Source: a virus. From it: a DNA stretch of 64,000 nt. The stretch is from positions 38,083 through 102,082 of the IMG/VR virus record IMGVR_UViG_3300046535_000869, one strand, 5' to 3'. Below the pieces are notes generated by a model, which did no database searches, was not told where the DNA came from, and saw nothing but the letters and a program-made list of their open reading frames with translations. Each line of letters begins with the position of its first letter. Positions within the stretch are counted from its first letter, which is position 1. Position numbers and translations under genes: made by a program. Below, piece after piece: positions 1 through 32,854 of this stretch.

Positions 1-1211
1 TGGCGAGACCGATGGCGACGCCGACGCCGACGGCGAGACAGACGCGCTGGGGCTAACACTGGGTGACTGTGACGCGGACGGCGAGACGCTCGCGCTCGGA
101 GACTTCGAGGCGCTGGGCGACACGCTCGGCGATTGCGAGGCAGACGGAGAGACCGACGGCGACTGACTCGCCGAGGGACTAACCGACGCCGACGGCGACA
201 CAGAAGCAGACGGACTGACCGACGCCGACGGCGAGACCGACGGACTCGATGAGGCTGACGGGCTAACGCTCGGCGACTGCGAGGCTGAGGGGCTGACCGA
301 CGCGCTGGGCGAGACGCTGGCGCTGGGGCTGACAGACGGCGACGCCGACGCCGAGGGACTGACGCTCGCCGACGGCGAGATGCTGGGCGACTGTGAGGCC
401 GATGGCGACACGCTGGCGGACGGCGACTTCGACGCCGACGGCGAGACAGACGGACTCTGTGACGCTGATGGACTAACGCTGGCCGACGGGCTGACGCTCG
501 GCGACTGACTCGCGCTGGGGCTGACACTCGCGCTGGGCGACACGCTCGGAGAGGCCGACGCCGACGGCGAGACCGACGCAGACGGGCTAACCGATGGAGA
601 GGCGCTCGCGCTTGGCGAGACGCTCGCCGACGGACTGATGCTCGGAGAAGCGCTGGCGCTTGGCGACTTCGACGCTGAAGGCGAGACCGACGGCGACGCG
701 CTCGCTGAGGGAGAGACCGACGCGGACGGGCTGACAGAGGCACTCGCTGACGCCGACGGAGAGACGCTCGGCGACTCGGCCTTGTTGAACGCCGTGACCT
801 CGGTCGTGTTCAGGATCGCGACAGCCGCCTGCACGTCCACCGTCTCGATGGCGTGGCTGAGCGACGCCGACGGACTCACGCTCGCCGACGGTGACTTCGA
901 GGCGCTCGGACTGACGCTCGCGCTGGGCGACTTCGACGGCGACGATGACGCCGACGGCGAGACGCTTGGACTCTGCGAGGCGGACGGTGAGACGGACGCG
1001 CTCGGCGAAACGCTGGCGCTTGGAGACTTCGAGGCCGACGGGCTGACGCTCGCACTCGGAGAGACACTCGGACTTTGTGAGGCCGATGGGCTGACAGATG
1101 GCGACTGGCTGGCGCTGGGGCTGACCGACGCGCTTGGACTGACGCTCGCCGAAGGGCTGACCGACGCTGAAGGCGAGACCGACGCCGACGGCGATAGCGA
1201 CGATGACCCGG
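1..1211 (-). repeat. Degenerate coding repeat (SPSAS units)
   Basis: Consecutive short units encode Ser-Pro-Ser-Ala-Ser followed by Val, Lys or Gln. The DNA copies differ mostly at synonymous sites. A unique island interrupts the tract at about 775-860. On the plus strand the same DNA reads as an Asp/Gly/Leu-rich shadow frame that I do not call. Confidence 0.85.
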
Positions 1212-21885: not shown

Positions 21886-22280
21886 TGTGGAGAGGACAGA
21901 TTGAGCGTGAAGGCCAGCGGTTCGCCGTCAGCTCCCGCGTGCTCCAGCTTCGTCGGCGCGTCCAGGCCCAGGAGCTTCGCCCGCCGGTCCATCACCGCGA
22001 CGACCGCGCGAACGGCCTTCTCGTCGCCAGCCTTGACCTTGGGCCAGAGCGCCAGCACCAGCTTGTCGCACCGCTCCAGCTCCAGCTCGCGTAGCTTCTC
22101 GGCCTTCTTCGCCGACAGCGCCGCCAGCTCGCCGAGCGCGGCCTGGACATCCCGATACGCCGTCTGATGGTTGACGCCGAGCTGCGCGCCGATCTGCCGG
22201 TAGCGTACGCCCGCGATCCTTAGCTCCAGGGCCTTCCCGCGCCGCTCTATCGCCGCTTCCGATTGGCCAGTCTTAGGCAT
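21882..22280 (-). CDS. terS: Terminase small subunit
   Basis: Start chosen at ATG 22280 (MPKTGQSEAAIERR), 8 bases inside the end of the ParB-methylase gene. The 132-residue protein has a helix-turn-helix (GVRYRQIGAQLGVNHQTAY) followed by a long helical region (ELAALSAKKAEKLRELELER), the usual small terminase layout for binding pac or cos DNA and oligomerising. Its position immediately upstream of terL supports the call. Confidence 0.82.
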   Translation of the reverse strand: MPKTGQSEAAIERRGKALELRIAGVRYRQIGAQLGVNHQTAYRDVQAALGELAALSAKKAEKLRELELERCDKLVLALWPKVKAGDEKAVRAVVAVMDRRAKLLGLDAPTKLEHAGADGEPLAFTLNLSSPQ

Positions 22281-23679
22281 CGATCTTCTTCGCCTTCTTC
22301 CCCGTGAACGCTTCCCAGCGGTCGATGGCAACCTGCACGTACGTCGGGTCCAGCTCGATGGCGAAGACCTTCCGGGAGGTCATCTCGCCCGCGATGATCG
22401 TCGACCCGGAGCCTGAGAACGGCTCGAAGACCTCCAGGATGGCATGGTTCCGCATCGGCCGGGCCATGCACTCGACCGGCTTCTGGGTACTGTGAATCGT
22501 GTCGCCCGTCTTATCGCGCGTCTCGATATCCCAGACCGTCGAGTCCATCCCTTCAGGGAGCGCGTCGACCTCGGTGGAGCCGCACGTCTGACAGGTGTGG
22601 ACGGTCGGAACAATCGGCCAGACCGTCGACTGGTTCCGCTTCCCGCCCCAGTGACCGGTCCGGTTGTCCTTGACCGCGTAGAAGCAGGTTTCGTGCTGCC
22701 AGTGGTAGTGACCGCGCGAGAGGACGATCCGTGGCTTACGCCAGATGATCTGGCTCCTGACGCCGAACGCCGCCTTCGTCAACGAGTCCTGGACCTCCGA
22801 GCAGGCGACCGAGGCGTGCCAGACGTACGCGACATCGCCAGGGAACAGCTTCCAGACCTCGGTCCAGTCCGCCCGGTCGTCGTTCATCACCTTGCCCATG
22901 CGGTCGGACTTGTTCACGCCCGCGCGCGTCCGCCACTCCGGGTCGTACTCGACGCCGTACGGCGGGTCCGTGACCATCAGGAGAGGCTTGGCCCCAGCCA
23001 GCAGCCGGTCGACCGCCTCAGCCGACGTGGAGTCGCCGCAGAGCAGCCGGTGCGGCCCCAGCTCGAACAGGTCGCCAAGCTGGATCTCGGTGTGCTGCTT
23101 GGCCGGGACGGAGTCCGGGTCGGTTAACCCACCGTTAGGTTTCGCGTCCGCTTCGTACAGCGCCGCCAGCTCGTCCTCGTTCCAGAAGGTGCTCAGGTCG
23201 ACGCCGTCCGCCGCCAGGGCCTTCAGGACCTCGGTGTCCCAGCCGTCCGCCAGCTCAGCCGCCCGGTTGTCGAAGATGGCCAGGCGCGCCTTCTGCTCAG
23301 GCGTCAGCCCGCGCCGCCGGACCGCGATGATCGTGTTGCCGTCCGCCTCGACCACCTGGACCTTCGTCAGCCCGGCTTCGCCAGCCGCCTCGATGGTCGC
23401 GTTCCCGGCCAGGACGACGTTGTCCTCGTCGATGACGATGCTCCTGGCTGCGCCGACCTCGTTCAGGGCATCCACGATGGTGCCGACGTTGCGAGGCGTG
23501 TGCTTCCGGGCGTTCTTCGGGTCGGGAACCAGGTCGGAGATGTGGGTCGTCGGGCCGTCGCCAGCCGAGGGAGCGACCGGAGGAGGCTGCTCGGTGACGA
23601 GCTGTGTCGCGCGCGGCTTGGTCTTCTTTGGCGGAACTTCAGCCTGCAGAGCGAGATGCGCGCCGTCTGACTCGGCCAT
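22273..23679 (-). CDS. ParB-like domain fused to DNA methyltransferase
   Basis: The 468-residue protein has an N-terminal ParB/sulfiredoxin-type domain (VPDPKNARKHTPRNV, then VVLAGNATIEAA, residues ~47-130). A beta-class N4/N6 methyltransferase follows, with TDPPYGVEYD at residues 237-246 and FEPFSGSGSTIIAGE near the C-terminus. The target-recognition region carries an inserted Cys pair (CQTC). This fusion is widespread in phages and protects DNA or competes with host marking. GC-rich neighbours and coupling to terS place it in the packaging unit. Confidence 0.88.
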   Translation of the reverse strand: MAESDGAHLALQAEVPPKKTKPRATQLVTEQPPPVAPSAGDGPTTHISDLVPDPKNARKHTPRNVGTIVDALNEVGAARSIVIDEDNVVLAGNATIEAAGEAGLTKVQVVEADGNTIIAVRRRGLTPEQKARLAIFDNRAAELADGWDTEVLKALAADGVDLSTFWNEDELAALYEADAKPNGGLTDPDSVPAKQHTEIQLGDLFELGPHRLLCGDSTSAEAVDRLLAGAKPLLMVTDPPYGVEYDPEWRTRAGVNKSDRMGKVMNDDRADWTEVWKLFPGDVAYVWHASVACSEVQDSLTKAAFGVRSQIIWRKPRIVLSRGHYHWQHETCFYAVKDNRTGHWGGKRNQSTVWPIVPTVHTCQTCGSTEVDALPEGMDSTVWDIETRDKTGDTIHSTQKPVECMARPMRNHAILEVFEPFSGSGSTIIAGEMTSRKVFAIELDPTYVQVAIDRWEAFTGKKAKKIDA

Positions 23680-28059: not shown

Positions 28060-29055
28060 GATCTGGTTCGCTTTCGCGCCATATCTTCAGCCGACGCAAG
28101 CTGCTTCTCATAGACCTCGATGATGCGTTCTCTGGCTGCAAGTTCATCGCGGAGACGGGAGACTTCGGCCTCGGCTTTGGTCAGTTCTCCACGCAGGTAG
28201 CGCACGGTTTCCGCATGGCTGTCTCGTTCCTCGCGGAGACGGGAGACGTCGGCCGTTTGCTGCGAATCATGTTCACAAATGGCATCCACAAGGTCAGCCA
28301 CGTTGTCAGGCGTGGTGCGCTGAAAGTGTAAGGCCCGCGTATGCTTCTCCAGCCGGTCAATTACGTCAGCAACCACGGCTTCAGACAAGCGTGTGGGGGT
28401 GTCGTCAGGGGCGACGGGCTCAGTCATGAAATCCTCTCTCGGATGGCTCTGGCAACATCCTTAGCGAAGTTCAACCCATCTGCACAGTTCGGACACCATT
28501 GACTAAATTGCTTCTGGTCGTCCCTATGGTGCGTCTTGTGCTCCTTGTCCCCGTAGTCCTCGCACCACCTGTAAGCCAACCCTCGGAGCAGTTCCCTCAT
28601 ACAGTCCTGCGGCGGGGTGTCGTCAGGGGCGATGGGCTTGGCCGCGCCCGCACGAATCTCATCAAGCGGCCGGATGCGTCCCGCCTTCACATCATCAAGG
28701 GCGGTCACAAGTGCTTCCGCTTCTGCCTGATCGAACTGCGGCGGGGTGTCGTCAGGGGCGACGCAACTAGGGCTAGGCGCGTGTGGCAATCGACCGCCAC
28801 AACGACAAATAATGTCATCAGGGTCGGGGGTGTCGTCAGGGGCGACGGGCGGCTGACAGGTGCAGGGCCGTGTTCGATCAACGCTGATGGAATGTTCTCC
28901 CTCAACGAAGACATTGCAGCCTTCATAATGGCCGAAGGCTTCAAAGACACTCGCTGGCATCTTCGGCGCTTCGGCGTTTTCAGCATCGCACGCCGGACAG
29001 CCCCATGTCTGATACGGCTGGTCATGGTTATGTTGCGGCGGGGTGTCGTCAGGGG
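28031..29055 (-). repeat. Six dispersed in-frame copies of a VAPDDTP-coding element
   Basis: The plus-strand core gtgtcgtcaggggcgacg occurs near 28031, 28399, 28617, 28746 and 28830, with a diverged copy near 29043. Every copy reads VAPDDTP-like on the minus strand. Two copies lie at gene starts; the diverged third copy also does. Confidence 0.85.
28056..28427 (-). CDS. VAPDDT-tagged coiled-coil protein B
   Basis: The 123-residue protein starts MTEPVAPDDTPTRLSE and then has a long heptad-like region with ADVSRLREERDSH and AEVSRLRDELAAR. It overlaps the next gene by four bases. It is probably a duplicate of gene A with a longer coiled coil. Function unknown; oligomerisation is likely. Confidence 0.6.
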   Translation of the reverse strand: MTEPVAPDDTPTRLSEAVVADVIDRLEKHTRALHFQRTTPDNVADLVDAICEHDSQQTADVSRLREERDSHAETVRYLRGELTKAEAEVSRLRDELAARERIIEVYEKQLASAEDMARKRTRS

Positions 29056-29071
29056 GGCGGGCGTCAGACAT
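28424..29071 (-). CDS. Multi-VAPDDTP protein with zinc-binding Cys clusters
   Basis: The 215-residue protein begins MSDARPPDDTPPQHN and contains three further copies of the element (PPVAPDDTPDP, CVAPDDTPPQF, KPIAPDDTPPQD). Between copies lie Cys clusters: CPAC, then CTC, then CRC, and near the end CPNC. The modules look like small domains joined by a repeated linker. AKDVARAIRERI closes the protein as a helix. Function unknown. Confidence 0.6.
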   Translation of the reverse strand: MSDARPPDDTPPQHNHDQPYQTWGCPACDAENAEAPKMPASVFEAFGHYEGCNVFVEGEHSISVDRTRPCTCQPPVAPDDTPDPDDIICRCGGRLPHAPSPSCVAPDDTPPQFDQAEAEALVTALDDVKAGRIRPLDEIRAGAAKPIAPDDTPPQDCMRELLRGLAYRWCEDYGDKEHKTHHRDDQKQFSQWCPNCADGLNFAKDVARAIRERIS

Positions 29072-29240
29072 CGGCCCGCCCGCCCGTCGCCGAGAACTGC
29101 GCCAGCGCCCGCTGGAACTCCGGCCGCTTGCCGAACTTACGGATCATGCGCGCCCGGACCAGATCGCCCGCTACGCCGCTCGGCAGTCGCTTGAACGCGA
29201 TGGCCCTCATCGCCCAGGTCAATCGCTTAGCCCTTCCCAT
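29064..29240 (-). CDS. Basic small protein, unknown
   Basis: The 58-residue protein MGRAKRLTWAMRAIAFK... is strongly basic. GGAGG lies upstream of ATG 29240, within the end of the preceding gene. Low-complexity Arg/Ala content; no family is recognised. Confidence 0.45.
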   Translation of the reverse strand: MGRAKRLTWAMRAIAFKRLPSGVAGDLVRARMIRKFGKRPEFQRALAQFSATGGRADV

Positions 29241-29475
29241 GCTTCGCCTCCTCCTCCAGTGCTGCCCAGGTCTCGCTGTTTTCGCTGACCATCTGGTTAT
29301 AGAACGCCTGGACCTCTGGCTTCTCGAACTGGTCCGCGTACGCCTCGCGCACGCCGTCCGGGAGCAGGTCGCTGTCACCGCCGTCGGCCGCGTCGGCGAC
29401 GGCCAGGAAGATCTCGACCAGCGCGCGGACGACGACCGGCTTCAGCGGCTCGCCCATCTTCGGTTTGAACATCAT
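29227..29475 (-). CDS. Acidic helical protein, unknown
   Basis: The 82-residue protein MMFKPKMGEPLKPVV... is acidic and helical in its C-terminal half (AYADQFEKPEVQAFYNQM). Alternative starts lie at Met2 and Met7. No family is recognised. Confidence 0.5.
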   Translation of the reverse strand: MMFKPKMGEPLKPVVVRALVEIFLAVADAADGGDSDLLPDGVREAYADQFEKPEVQAFYNQMVSENSETWAALEEEAKHGKG

Positions 29476-29487
29476 GCCCTCATGCCA

Positions 29488-29625
29488 TCATGCCGCGACG
29501 TACCACTTCCCCAGGTAGCGGAACAGGACGCCGGTCGTCTGCCCCGGAGGCAGCGCGACGAAGCGCTGGATGTCCTCGTGGAAGACGACCAGCAGCGACC
29601 CGTCCGGTTGTCGTTCGACGCCCAT
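29488..29625 (-). CDS. Small beta protein starting at the end of the pentamer array
   Basis: The 45-residue protein MGVERQPDGSLLVVFHED... is beta-rich. Its ATG at 29625 is the base next to the last GCCTGCC anchor of the 5-base array (29626-30755), and an AGGAG upstream falls inside the array. It therefore uses array sequence as its leader. Confidence 0.5.
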   Translation of the reverse strand: MGVERQPDGSLLVVFHEDIQRFVALPPGQTTGVLFRYLGKWYVAA

Positions 29626-30755
29626 GCCTGCCACTCCTCGCCGGGCCGCGCCACGCCTGCCCATCCGAACCCAGACTTGCCTTGCCCCGCCTTGCCTGCC
29701 GGACACCGCCTCGCTCTTCCTGACCTCTCCCTGCCATGCCTGCCAGACCGGACGAAGCCGGGCCTAGCCTCACCACGCCTGCCGAGCCGCTCCGCGCGCC
29801 GCCTAGCCTTACCTGTCCAGGCCCTGCTTCGCCTGGCCTGCCGAACCGCGCCTAGCCCAGCGCAACCGGACCTCGCCTGGCCTGCCGCTCCGTTCTTAGC
29901 CCAGCCAAGCCAGGCCGGGTCCAGCCCAACCTCGCCTGCCGCTCCACGCCACGCGATGCCGAACCCGTCAGCGCCGCGCACCGCCACGCCTGCCGAACCG
30001 TGCCGAACCGTGCCGAACCGTGCCAGGCCCAGCCTCGCCTCGCCAGGCCCATCCTGCCGAGCCGAGCCATGCCATTCCCGGCCTCGCCTTTCCTTACCTG
30101 CCTCGCCGAACACCGACTCGCCCTGCCTGGCTTCGCCCTGCCATGCCTGCCGAACCAGACCCAGCCAGTCCTCGCCTTACCTAACCAAGCCTGCCAAGCC
30201 CGACCGCGCCATTCCCGGCCGCGCCAGGACACGCCTAGCCTGCCGAGCCGCGCGCAACCTTACCCCGCCTGTCGTTACCCAACCACTCCATACCTGGCCT
30301 GCCGAGCCTAACCTATCCACGCATGACCACGCCTTGCCCAGCATTACCGAGCCTGCCGCTCCGAACTAAACCCAGCCGCGCCCGGCCGCGCAGCGCCTAA
30401 CCAGTCCTGCCGAACCGCGCCAGACCTAGCCGACCTGACCTAGCCGAACCTGCCGAACCGCTCCATGCCCGTCCCGACTACGCCCCGCTGGGCCAGTCAT
30501 GACCACGCCTGCCGATCCGACCTCACCAGTCCAGGCCCGGCCGAGCCTCGCCCCGCCTGCCAGACCTCGCTGGACCTTGCCCTACCAGACGCCGCCTTGC
30601 CGCGCCTGCCGTTCCTTGCCTCTCCAAGCCCGAACACGCCAGACCAGGCCAGTCCTAGCCCTACCACGCCTGCCTCGCCGTGACCCGCCATGCACCGCTG
30701 TGCCACGCCTGCCGAACCAGGCCGCGCCAGTCCTAGCCCTGCCTTGCCTGCCGAG
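29626..30755 (-). repeat. Quasi-periodic 5-base array (CCNNN with 4-base anchors)
   Basis: For about 1.13 kb, plus-strand CC dinucleotides recur every 5 bases with free trinucleotides between them (minus strand GGNNN). At anchors reading CCTGCC the spacing drops to 4. GCCTGCC-type anchors start at 29626, 29655, 29694, 29738, 29777, 29836, 29880, 29934, 29988 and so on to 30746. Nearly every interval equals 5n+4 (29, 39, 44, 59, 54, 64, 49). No gene is called in this stretch: frames are open on both strands only because stop codons are rare in it. Confidence 0.9.
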
Positions 30756-30757
30756 AC

Positions 30758-31387
30758 TTAGACGCGCTCGAACCGGCCCCAGCCCAGCGCGCTCGACCGC
30801 TCCGGCCGTCCCTCGCAGATCCCGACGCCCCAACCCGCCTGGTCAATCAGCGCCAGAAGCTGGGCCTGGCTGATGAGCCGAGGGTTGAATTCGATGCGGA
30901 CCCTGAGCTGCCAGTGCGGGTAGATCGGCCGGTAGACGAGGCCGCGCGTGTTGATCCCGATGGTGACCGCGTCCTCCCGCATCGCGCCGATGGCTGGCCC
31001 GCCGTTCGGCGTCTCGATGGGAACATACGCCGCGCCAGGCGACGCCACGCTGTCGACGAAGATCGCCTGCCGGAGCGCAACCTTGGTCAGATCGTCGAAC
31101 GCCGTCGCCGCCGAGATGAGGGACTTCTTGAGCGCCGTGATCGGCGCGCACTCCCGGCCCTGCTCGTCGACGTACCGCGCCGCCAGGAACTCCGTCTCCG
31201 GCACGCGCTCCGCCTTCGCCTTCTTCGCCTTCTTCTGCTGCTTGTCCCGGATCTCCTGCTTGGCCTTCTCGGCGAACGCATGGATGACCAGAGGCGATCC
31301 GTTGCGCCCGCGCAGCGTGACCTCGATGCTCTGGATGCCGGTCGTTGCCGTGTTCTCGGTTGGTGCTGCCAGTACTGCCGTCGTCAT
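30758..31387 (-). CDS. Conserved phage protein, replication-region, unknown
   Basis: The 209-residue protein starts MTTAVLAAPTENTATTG. It includes a basic KQEIRDKQQKKAKKAKAER stretch and REDAVTIGINTRGLVYRPIY, and ends with AGWGVGICEGRPERSS...GWGRFERV. I recall this C-terminal layout from proteins in many phage replication or recombination regions with no assigned function. Its TAA is two bases from the start of the pentamer array, which therefore forms its 3' untranslated region. Confidence 0.55.
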   Translation of the reverse strand: MTTAVLAAPTENTATTGIQSIEVTLRGRNGSPLVIHAFAEKAKQEIRDKQQKKAKKAKAERVPETEFLAARYVDEQGRECAPITALKKSLISAATAFDDLTKVALRQAIFVDSVASPGAAYVPIETPNGGPAIGAMREDAVTIGINTRGLVYRPIYPHWQLRVRIEFNPRLISQAQLLALIDQAGWGVGICEGRPERSSALGWGRFERV

Positions 31388-31408
31388 CTTCGTCTCCTTG
31401 GTGAGTTG

Positions 31409-31963
31409 TTATTTGAGCTTCACGTTTCGGCCTTCGAGTTTGAGGCGGTCGGCCAGGGCCTGCTGGTCCGCCGCGTCGACGCAGGACACGGACAACCAGC
31501 ACGCGGTCGTCTCGCCCTTCGCGATCTTCTTGGTTTCCTTGATCTGCGCGCGCACCTGGTCGCGCGTGAGATGTTCCGCCTCGGCCTTGTCGAGCCAGGC
31601 GTCCTGCTGGTCCGGTTCCAGCGGCGCGACCTCCTGATGAATCGCGAACGGGAGCGACTCGCGCCGACGGCTCGGAGGAATCGCGCGCGCGACCCAGGCC
31701 AGGTTGTCCGCCGTCCCAGACTCGTAGTCGACCGCGTCGAGGAACTGGCTGTACGTCTCCGGGAAGGTGACCTCGCCGAACGCCAGCAGATCGCCGACCC
31801 AGAACGGACTCGCCCGGTGCGCGTGCTTGGCCCAGGCCAGCGTCTCGCCCCACTCCTCGACGGTCATGTCCTCGGTCGCGACGACACGGTTGCCCTCGAA
31901 CTCGAACTTCCCAATCGTGAACGGAGCGACCTCTAGGGCCTCAGCGACAGCTTCCATCGTCAT
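31409..31963 (-). CDS. Conserved phage protein, unknown
   Basis: The 184-residue protein includes VVATEDMTVEEWGETLAWA, SPFWVGDLLAFGEVTFPE, and ARAIPPSRRRESLPFAIHQE followed by DKAEAEHLTRDQVRAQI. The latter resembles the helix-turn-helix-rich central part of ParB/KorB-like plasmid proteins, which phages also carry near replication genes. This is a weak comparison. It is coupled to the upstream endonuclease gene. Confidence 0.5.
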   Translation of the reverse strand: MTMEAVAEALEVAPFTIGKFEFEGNRVVATEDMTVEEWGETLAWAKHAHRASPFWVGDLLAFGEVTFPETYSQFLDAVDYESGTADNLAWVARAIPPSRRRESLPFAIHQEVAPLEPDQQDAWLDKAEAEHLTRDQVRAQIKETKKIAKGETTACWLSVSCVDAADQQALADRLKLEGRNVKLK

Positions 31964-32418: not shown

Positions 32419-32609
32419 GCAGGACTCCACGTCGTCGAGCACCACGTACAGAAGAACTCGCCAGACGGTTTCGCGATGGCCCCGGTCTGTTGACAGCTCG
32501 GACATCTCGCCGACGTGAGGCGCGAGCGCTCGGCCTTGTCCTTCGGCAGCTTCATCATCGGCCGCGCGCCGGGCCGACGGAGGCCCAACTTCTCGTTGAT
32601 CTTGCTCAT
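32415..32609 (-). CDS. Zinc-ribbon protein (64 residues)
   Basis: The protein MSKINEKLGLRRPGARP... has CPSC at residues ~36-39 and CTWC at ~54-57, a C-terminal zinc ribbon after a basic N-terminal tail. It is coupled to neighbours on both sides. Confidence 0.6.
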   Translation of the reverse strand: MSKINEKLGLRRPGARPMMKLPKDKAERSRLTSARCPSCQQTGAIAKPSGEFFCTWCSTTWSPA

Positions 32610-32854
32610 CGCCAGCCCGCGTCGTAGAGGTCAACCTGCATCTGGAGGTTCAACCAGAACTCCGGCGTCGTCTTCGTGTACTGCGCGAAGATGAGCGCCA
32701 CGCGCGTCGACACATTCCGCCGACCGTGGATGATGTCGCCGAGGTACGTCGCCGCGATGCCCATCTTCCGCGCGGCGTCCTGCTGGGTCTCGGATAGAAA
32801 CTGCTCAATGAAGACCTGACCGGGAGGCGTCGGCTCGCGCTGCTTCGGCGTCAT
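32606..32854 (-). CDS. HigA-like antitoxin/regulator (HTH_XRE)
   Basis: The 82-residue protein has PGQVFIEQFLSETQQDAARK, then MGIAATYLGDIIHGRRNVS and TRVALIFAQYTKTTPEFWLNLQ. This matches the HigA addiction-module antidote family, including the PEFWLNLQ(x)xYDL ending. No HigB-type toxin lies beside it: the neighbours are a zinc ribbon and an HNH-like gene. It may act as a repressor or as an antitoxin against a host toxin. Confidence 0.8.
   Translation of the reverse strand: MTPKQREPTPPGQVFIEQFLSETQQDAARKMGIAATYLGDIIHGRRNVSTRVALIFAQYTKTTPEFWLNLQMQVDLYDAGWR

What the first reader, a model, noticed from the sequence alone, without database searches (positions are those of the whole stretch)
29626..30755. 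1.1-kb array of CC every 5 bases, phase-shifted at CCTGCC anchors
On the plus strand the pattern CCNNN runs for over a kilobase with the trinucleotides almost free. At about 24 anchors (GCCTGCC or close) one unit is 4 bases. Anchor-to-anchor distances are almost all 5n+4 (29, 39, 44, 59, 54, 64, 49). Where a CC is lost it is usually one substitution (CT, CA, CG). So spacing, not sequence, is conserved. On the transcribed strand this is GGNNNGG repeated, which could form two-tier G-quadruplexes or bind a GG-recognising protein. The array fills exactly the space between one gene's stop and the next gene's start. I know no described element with this design; possibilities include a long structured RNA, a packaging or replication site, or a protein scaffold.
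Basis: seen in the sequence. Interest (0 to 1): 0.92.

Follow-up and report, generated by a model that had tools for sequence, protein, structure and literature searches.

The report
Phage VIPR guide-RNA array
The odd one-kilobase stretch is a string of about two dozen RNA guides that a bacterial virus carries next to the gene for its CRISPR-like Vipr protein, almost certainly to switch off rival viruses; this kind of system was first described in a 2026 preprint, and here it is found unusually long and neatly punctuated.

Summary
In detail: CC recurs every 5 bases over 29622-30751, reset by 4-base CCTG units. Read as RNA (minus strand, the strand of the neighbouring genes), the unit is YNNGG and the anchors are GGCAGG. 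This is the guide-RNA (vrRNA) array of a VIPR system (Viral Interference Programmable Repeat; bioRxiv preprint PMC13142463, 2026). The adjacent gene 30758-31387 (-) encodes Vipr: PHROG 4652, profile match E 1e-20 to the solved SUSP1 Vipr, and a confident AlphaFold model closest to CRISPR Csm3/Cas7 RAMP proteins. Of 163 comparable arrays fetched, 133 share a locus with a Vipr homologue, always in sense orientation. Decoding their NN dinucleotides gives targets only under the published 1-nt skip rule. Mycobacteriophage Quico's guide hits the tape-measure gene of phage Che8 (19/20, skips on wobble bases; Quico's own site 14/20). A Mycobacterium szulgai guide hits the vipr genes of cluster F phages. 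Target matches stop at the GGCAGG anchors, which therefore act as punctuation between roughly 24 guides in the window. The window's own targets were not found, and no standard accessory (vap-like) gene lies beside it. Verdict: new member of a known, very recent kind; the punctuation may be undescribed.

The parts
29622..30751 (-). vrRNA (guide RNA) array: about 231 units, RNA consensus YNNGG (CCNNR on the plus strand), cut by GGCAGG anchors into about 24 guides of 5-12 units
   Evidence: autocorrelation; HMM parse; guide list
30758..31387 (-). vipr gene, 209 aa (PHROG 4652; RAMP/Cas7-like RNA-binding protein), directly 5' of the array in the transcript
   Evidence: PHROG 4652 E 6.9e-21; family profile hits PDB 36pp SUSP1 Vipr E 9.7e-21, single sequence E 7e-4; AlphaFold pLDDT 92.5; Foldseek best hits all CRISPR Csm/Cas7-type RAMPs
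30101..30145 (-). guide 15 (ATnAGnGAnCAnAGnGAnGGnTCnGA), shares 7 consecutive NN with guide 23
29699..29738 (-). guide 23 (ATnAGnGAnCAnAGnGAnGGnCC): same 7 NN as guide 15 while 6 of 21 GG/Y positions differ
30453..30507 (-). guide 7, 11 units, an example of a long guide; no exact match in IMG/VR
30669..30672 (-). one of 23 CAGG anchors (GGCAGG in RNA, CCTGCC on the plus strand), guide punctuation
   Evidence: target matches of homologous arrays stop at such anchors
29488..29625 (-). possible 45-aa ORF just 3' of the array; no PHROGs match; unconfirmed
32606..32854 (-). HTH regulator-like gene (PHROG 1381, antitoxin with HTH domain) upstream on the same strand; resembles the early-region setting of other VIPR phages

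Best explanation
The array is the guide-RNA bank of a phage-encoded VIPR system. It is transcribed with the vipr gene as a GGYNN-repeat RNA (inferred). Vipr, a single-RRM RAMP protein related to CRISPR Cas7, would coat the RNA, one subunit per 5-nt unit, gripping GGY and presenting the NN dinucleotide (inferred from the preprint). The NNs of one guide together pair with DNA in which every third base is skipped. Binding represses transcription of the target, mostly genes of rival phages or prophages (shown in the preprint for SUSP1 and Pseudomonas fulva VIPR; the decoding rule is independently supported here for arrays of the window's kind). The GGCAGG anchors, one base short, end one guide and start the next, so this one array holds about 24 guides (inferred from where target matches end in homologous arrays).
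For: Vipr identity. Array-Vipr linkage: 133 of 163 arrays have a Vipr homologue in the fetched locus, all in sense orientation; about half of the 30 without one start or end at a cut locus end. Second gene: PHROG 15946 family present in most loci, with layouts Vipr-P2-array or Vipr-array-P2. Unit logo YNNGG with variable NN. Skip rule: in the first, unselected set, 1-nt skip gives 7 guide-target pairs with score >= 18 and the other five skips give none. In the enlarged set, 12 guides score >= 17 against 1-2 for each other skip. Biological sense: Quico guide to Che8 tape measure LEGAINNMNF, 19/20 with skips on wobble bases, own site 14/20; M. szulgai guide to cluster F vipr genes 20/22, at most 15/22 in the fetched DNA around its own array; guides from several contigs hit a Sak4-like recombinase gene. 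Beyond the anchors matching falls to chance, about 25%.
Against: No target was found for the window's own guides: five pattern scans of IMG/VR gave only hits consistent with chance. No PHROG 15946 gene lies beside the window's array. No expression data. The window's Vipr is divergent (21-41% identity to others).
Confidence: 0.95

Rival explanations
1. The array codes for a repeat protein read in one frame.
For: Some frames are open for 185-248 codons within the array because it is GC-rich; annotators have called short genes inside such arrays in mycobacteriophages.
Against: All six frames contain stops (3 to 16 each). Period 5 with 4-base resets is incompatible with a fixed codon frame. 163 arrays in many phyla keep spacing, not a frame. 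No family match to the ORF 29472-30113.
Confidence: 0.02
2. A G-quadruplex or R-loop forming DNA element (replication, packaging or recombination site) in which GG spacing itself is functional.
For: GG every 5 bases on the non-template strand.
Against: Does not explain the linkage to a RAMP protein, the pyrimidine after GG, the decoded targets or the anchors at guide ends.
Confidence: 0.01
3. A VIPR array that is decayed or out of use in this phage: guides without living targets.
For: No targets found; only about 85% of units keep CC; no vap-like gene beside it.
Against: Intact vipr ORF with all invariant family residues; phase kept over 1.1 kb with no 6-base units; two guides keep seven identical NN while their GG/Y positions drifted (post hoc, about p 0.03). 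Other target-matching arrays have similar CC loss.
Confidence: 0.1
4. A hammerhead-ribozyme-interspersed VIPR array (a type named in the preprint).
For: That type exists in the preprint.
Against: No Rfam family, hammerheads included, up to E 1 in 29000-31500; guides abut with only 4-base anchors between them.
Confidence: 0.01

Closest known systems
VIPR systems (Vipr + vrRNA), PMC13142463, bioRxiv 2026
   Same: Phage-encoded RAMP protein of about 200 aa next to a noncoding RNA of YNNGG repeats with hypervariable NN; guides of about 7-12 units; targets read by the 1-nt skip rule in homologous loci; competitors' genes as targets.
   Different: One continuous 1.1-kb array of about 24 guides separated only by GGCAGG phase resets; no recognised vap beside the window's vipr. 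[quoted passage not shown] S18), which I could not read and which may be this layout.
Class 1 CRISPR-Cas (Cas7/Csm3 backbone on crRNA)
   Same: RAMP fold (best Foldseek matches); RNA-guided recognition with periodically skipped bases.
   Different: No cas operon or conserved direct repeats with unique spacers; the repeat and the guide alternate every 5 bases; carried by phages.
PHROG 4652 and PHROG 15946
   Same: The window's vipr is a PHROG 4652 member.
   Different: PHROGs lists both as unknown function; 15946 (predicted small protein, only weak winged-helix-like fold matches) is absent beside the window's array.

Membership tests
VIPR | RAMP-homologue vipr gene adjacent to the RNA locus | tested here: met
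   PHROG 4652, PDB 36pp match, AlphaFold plus Foldseek to Csm3/Cas7
VIPR | vrRNA of tandem YNNGG with conserved GGY and hypervariable NN, same strand as vipr | tested here: met
VIPR | about 9-16 repeats per guide | tested here: met
   Window blocks mostly 7-12 units (some shorter, so slightly under the published range); pooled spacing mode 9-11 units
VIPR | Targets follow the 1-nt skip rule (homologous loci) | tested here: met
[quoted passage not shown]
   No convincing target
VIPR | Accessory vap gene (typical, not universal) | tested here: inconclusive
   No PHROG 15946 homologue in the window; neighbours 29227-29475 and 29488-29625 unknown
VIPR | Invariant structured 3' tail (SUSP1 clade) | not tested
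   No separate tail is obvious; guides abut
VIPR | RNA expressed and bound by Vipr | not testable with these tools
   needs sRNA-seq and pull-down
CRISPR-Cas (Class 1) | Identical direct repeats separating unique spacers, with cas genes | tested here: not met
   Tandem-repeat finder gives only short patches in the array; the Vipr has no PADLOC match and the neighbours tested have no cas-type PHROG match
Hammerhead-interspersed VIPR array | Hammerhead ribozymes between guides | tested here: not met
   No Rfam hit

The most novel reading that the evidence does not exclude
The GGCAGG phase resets are true punctuation: a one-base deletion in the repeat, giving a fixed CAGG unit, ends one guide and begins the next, so that a single long RNA (24 guides here) is read as many guides without tails, ribozymes or CRISPR-type repeats, and the last NN before each anchor is not read. 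This would be an undescribed way of packing guides, shared by VIPR phages of actinobacteria, firmicutes, proteobacteria, planctomycetes and cyanobacteria.
Probability: 0.45. Interest if true: 0.7.

Novelty: new member of a known kind. Interest (0 to 1): 0.6.

Why it matters
VIPR was reported only in 2026 as an RNA-guided system with a noncontiguous code that may predate CRISPR. This window adds a very long natural array. The related loci give an independent check of the code in phages of Mycobacterium, among others. They also show that the preprint's kind of phage-against-phage targeting occurs between sequenced M. smegmatis phages (Quico against Che8), which are easy to grow and engineer, so the mechanism is directly testable there. 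The GGCAGG rule allows guides to be cut out of any such array by eye or by script.

Tried and rejected
Whole-array blastn against plasmids: nothing. Rfam: nothing. ARAGORN's tRNA-Ala at 30140-30233 is a false call inside the array. The first target run was swamped by simple repeats in false arrays such as L173 and was discarded. Window guides: guide 15/23 matched L250/L251 (skips on codon position 1) and L252 (start of a small ORF, skips on wobble), but no second guide matched the 42.8-kb contig of L252, so I do not claim it; guide 12 matched an AT-rich contig out of frame; guides 7 and 11 matched nothing. An automatic test of whether skips fall on wobble bases was inconclusive because the longest ORF is a poor guide to the true frame in GC-rich DNA. 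Host of the window phage not established: best primase hits are Arthrobacter and Acidithiobacillus phages at about 31-33% identity.

Full report
What is there. On the plus strand CC recurs every five bases from 29622 to 30751. CC pairs at lag 5 number 147 against 52 +/- 6 in shuffles, and no other part of the window comes close. A period-5 HMM parses 231 units, 25 of them four bases long, 23 of these CCTG, and none six bases long. Successive CCTGCC sites are 4 mod 5 apart in 20 of 26 cases. The three 'free' bases are really two free bases and a constrained one: the third is G, A or T and never C in the window. Read on the minus strand, which is the coding strand of the neighbours, the unit is YNNGG and the anchor GGCAGG.

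Relatives. A pattern search for GCCTGCC followed by CCNNN units brought back viral contigs; with the window and three reference phages, 93 loci carry arrays. Arrays were then found in bacterial contigs from many phyla. BLAST found them in cluster F mycobacteriophages, Gordonia phages and a cyanophage. Because the search pattern contained the anchor, the frequency of anchors in this set is biased upward. The 4-base units are CCTG followed by CC in 575 of 781 cases, and their spacing peaks at 9-11 units.

The partner protein. In annotated phages the array lies in the early operon, antisense as CC and sense as GG, next to a gene of about 208 aa (248 aa as annotated in cluster F). That gene belongs to PHROG 4652, of unknown function, and the window's neighbouring gene 30758-31387 does too (E 6.9e-21). 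A profile built from the arrays' own neighbours finds a homologue in the fetched locus for 133 of 163 arrays, always in sense orientation. Of the 30 without one, about half abut a cut locus end, while some have ample flanks and no homologue detected. A second gene family, PHROG 15946, is also in most loci.

Identification. The profile of the partner matches PDB 36pp, 'SUSP1 Vipr protein', at E 9.7e-21. The window protein alone matches it at E 7e-4. AlphaFold models the window protein at mean pLDDT 92.5. Its best PDB matches by fold (36pp was not among them; that library stops at April 2026) are Csm3-type and other Cas7-type RAMP subunits of CRISPR complexes. VIPR is described in PMC13142463: a Vipr protein, vrRNAs of alternating GGY and NN, and DNA recognition in which the NNs pair and one target base is skipped per unit.

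Independent test of the code. I decoded the guides of 143 Vipr-linked arrays and searched about 2.1 Mb of fetched DNA, arrays masked, with skips of 0 to 5 bases. Only the 1-nt skip gave pairs with score 18 or more: seven pairs, from three guides of which two are copies; all other skips gave none. After adding more phage DNA, 12 guides scored 17 or more under the 1-nt skip against one or two under each other skip; one of the 12 is a window guide against L253, a contig fetched with that very guide, and should be discounted. Eighty of the added loci were chosen for carrying the recombinase gene already hit, so the second count is partly biased; the first is not.

Targets make sense. A Quico guide matches Che8's tape-measure gene at 19 of 20 bases, codons CTT GAG GGC GCG ATT AAC AAC ATG AAT TTC, with every skip on a wobble base; Quico's own tape-measure gene gives 14 of 20 at the homologous place. 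Only Che8, Wachhund, Squirty and Minnie carry a close relative of the Che8 stretch in the phage collection. A guide of a Mycobacterium szulgai contig matches the vipr gene of cluster F phages at 20 of 22 and at most 15 of 22 in the fetched 8 kb around its own array. Guides from several contigs (L035/L123, L064/L096, L170) meet on one stretch of a P-loop gene that looks like a Sak4-type recombinase, and L075 on another; that gene name is my reading of its sequence, not a database match.

Anchors as punctuation. For ten target-matched guides I compared bases beyond the anchors at eight offsets: 17-34% matched, which is chance. Inside the block nearly every NN matches except the one at the RNA 3' end (11 of 20). 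In the window that last NN is mostly TC or GC. So anchors bound the guides, and the last unit before an anchor looks like part of the punctuation. The GGCAGG sequence and its phase shift are not mentioned in the preprint's main text; its fig. S18 may show them.

The window's own guides. Most blocks have 7-12 units. Guides 15 and 23 share seven consecutive NN dinucleotides while six of their 21 other positions differ, as expected if only NN is under selection; this was noticed after the fact (hypergeometric p about 0.03). Exact searches of IMG/VR with guides 15/23 (two versions), 12, 7 and 11 gave no convincing target. No match scoring 14 or more in the window's own genome was listed, as one would want of a weapon. 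The host is unknown.

Verdict. The finding is a real and well-read observation. It is a new, unusually long member of the VIPR kind. Function of this particular locus is inferred, not shown.

Noticed in passing
L034:7608-9162, L046:4398-4705, L015:802-1422: Arrays beside divergent Vipr homologues that have few or no CCTG anchors, so punctuation is not universal; probably other VIPR types.
   Followed up: partly
L031, L036, L048, L097, L149, L178: Good period-5 arrays in loci with ample flanks on at least one side but no detectable PHROG 4652 homologue; could pair with a still more divergent Vipr, or the gene lies outside the fetched stretch.
   Followed up: no
L054:1959-3546: A 325-unit, 1.6-kb array with 29 CCTG anchors in a 158-kb viral contig; longer than the window's.
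   Followed up: no
L002:5002-5250 (BobaPhett), L004:3000-3342 (Donkeykong), L244:4971-5287 (UmaThurman): Public records carry probably spurious hypothetical-protein genes inside vrRNA arrays, and their vipr genes are labelled hypothetical protein.
   Followed up: partly
PHROG 15946 family, e.g. L010:1868-2332: Second gene of most loci, motif SPLHxxFEWDDxxAAxxYRxxQAxxLIR; confident model (pLDDT 93.6) with only weak winged-helix-like matches; candidate vap, which the preprint predicts to be DNA-binding in some types.
   Followed up: partly
window 22273-23679 (-): ParB-like domain fused to a DNA methyltransferase (PHROG 498).
   Followed up: no
window 153-1202: 18- and 36-bp degenerate tandem repeats inside a large ORF near the left end of the window.
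   Followed up: no
window 30140-30233 (-): tRNA-Ala called by ARAGORN inside the array; a false positive of the repeat.
   Followed up: yes
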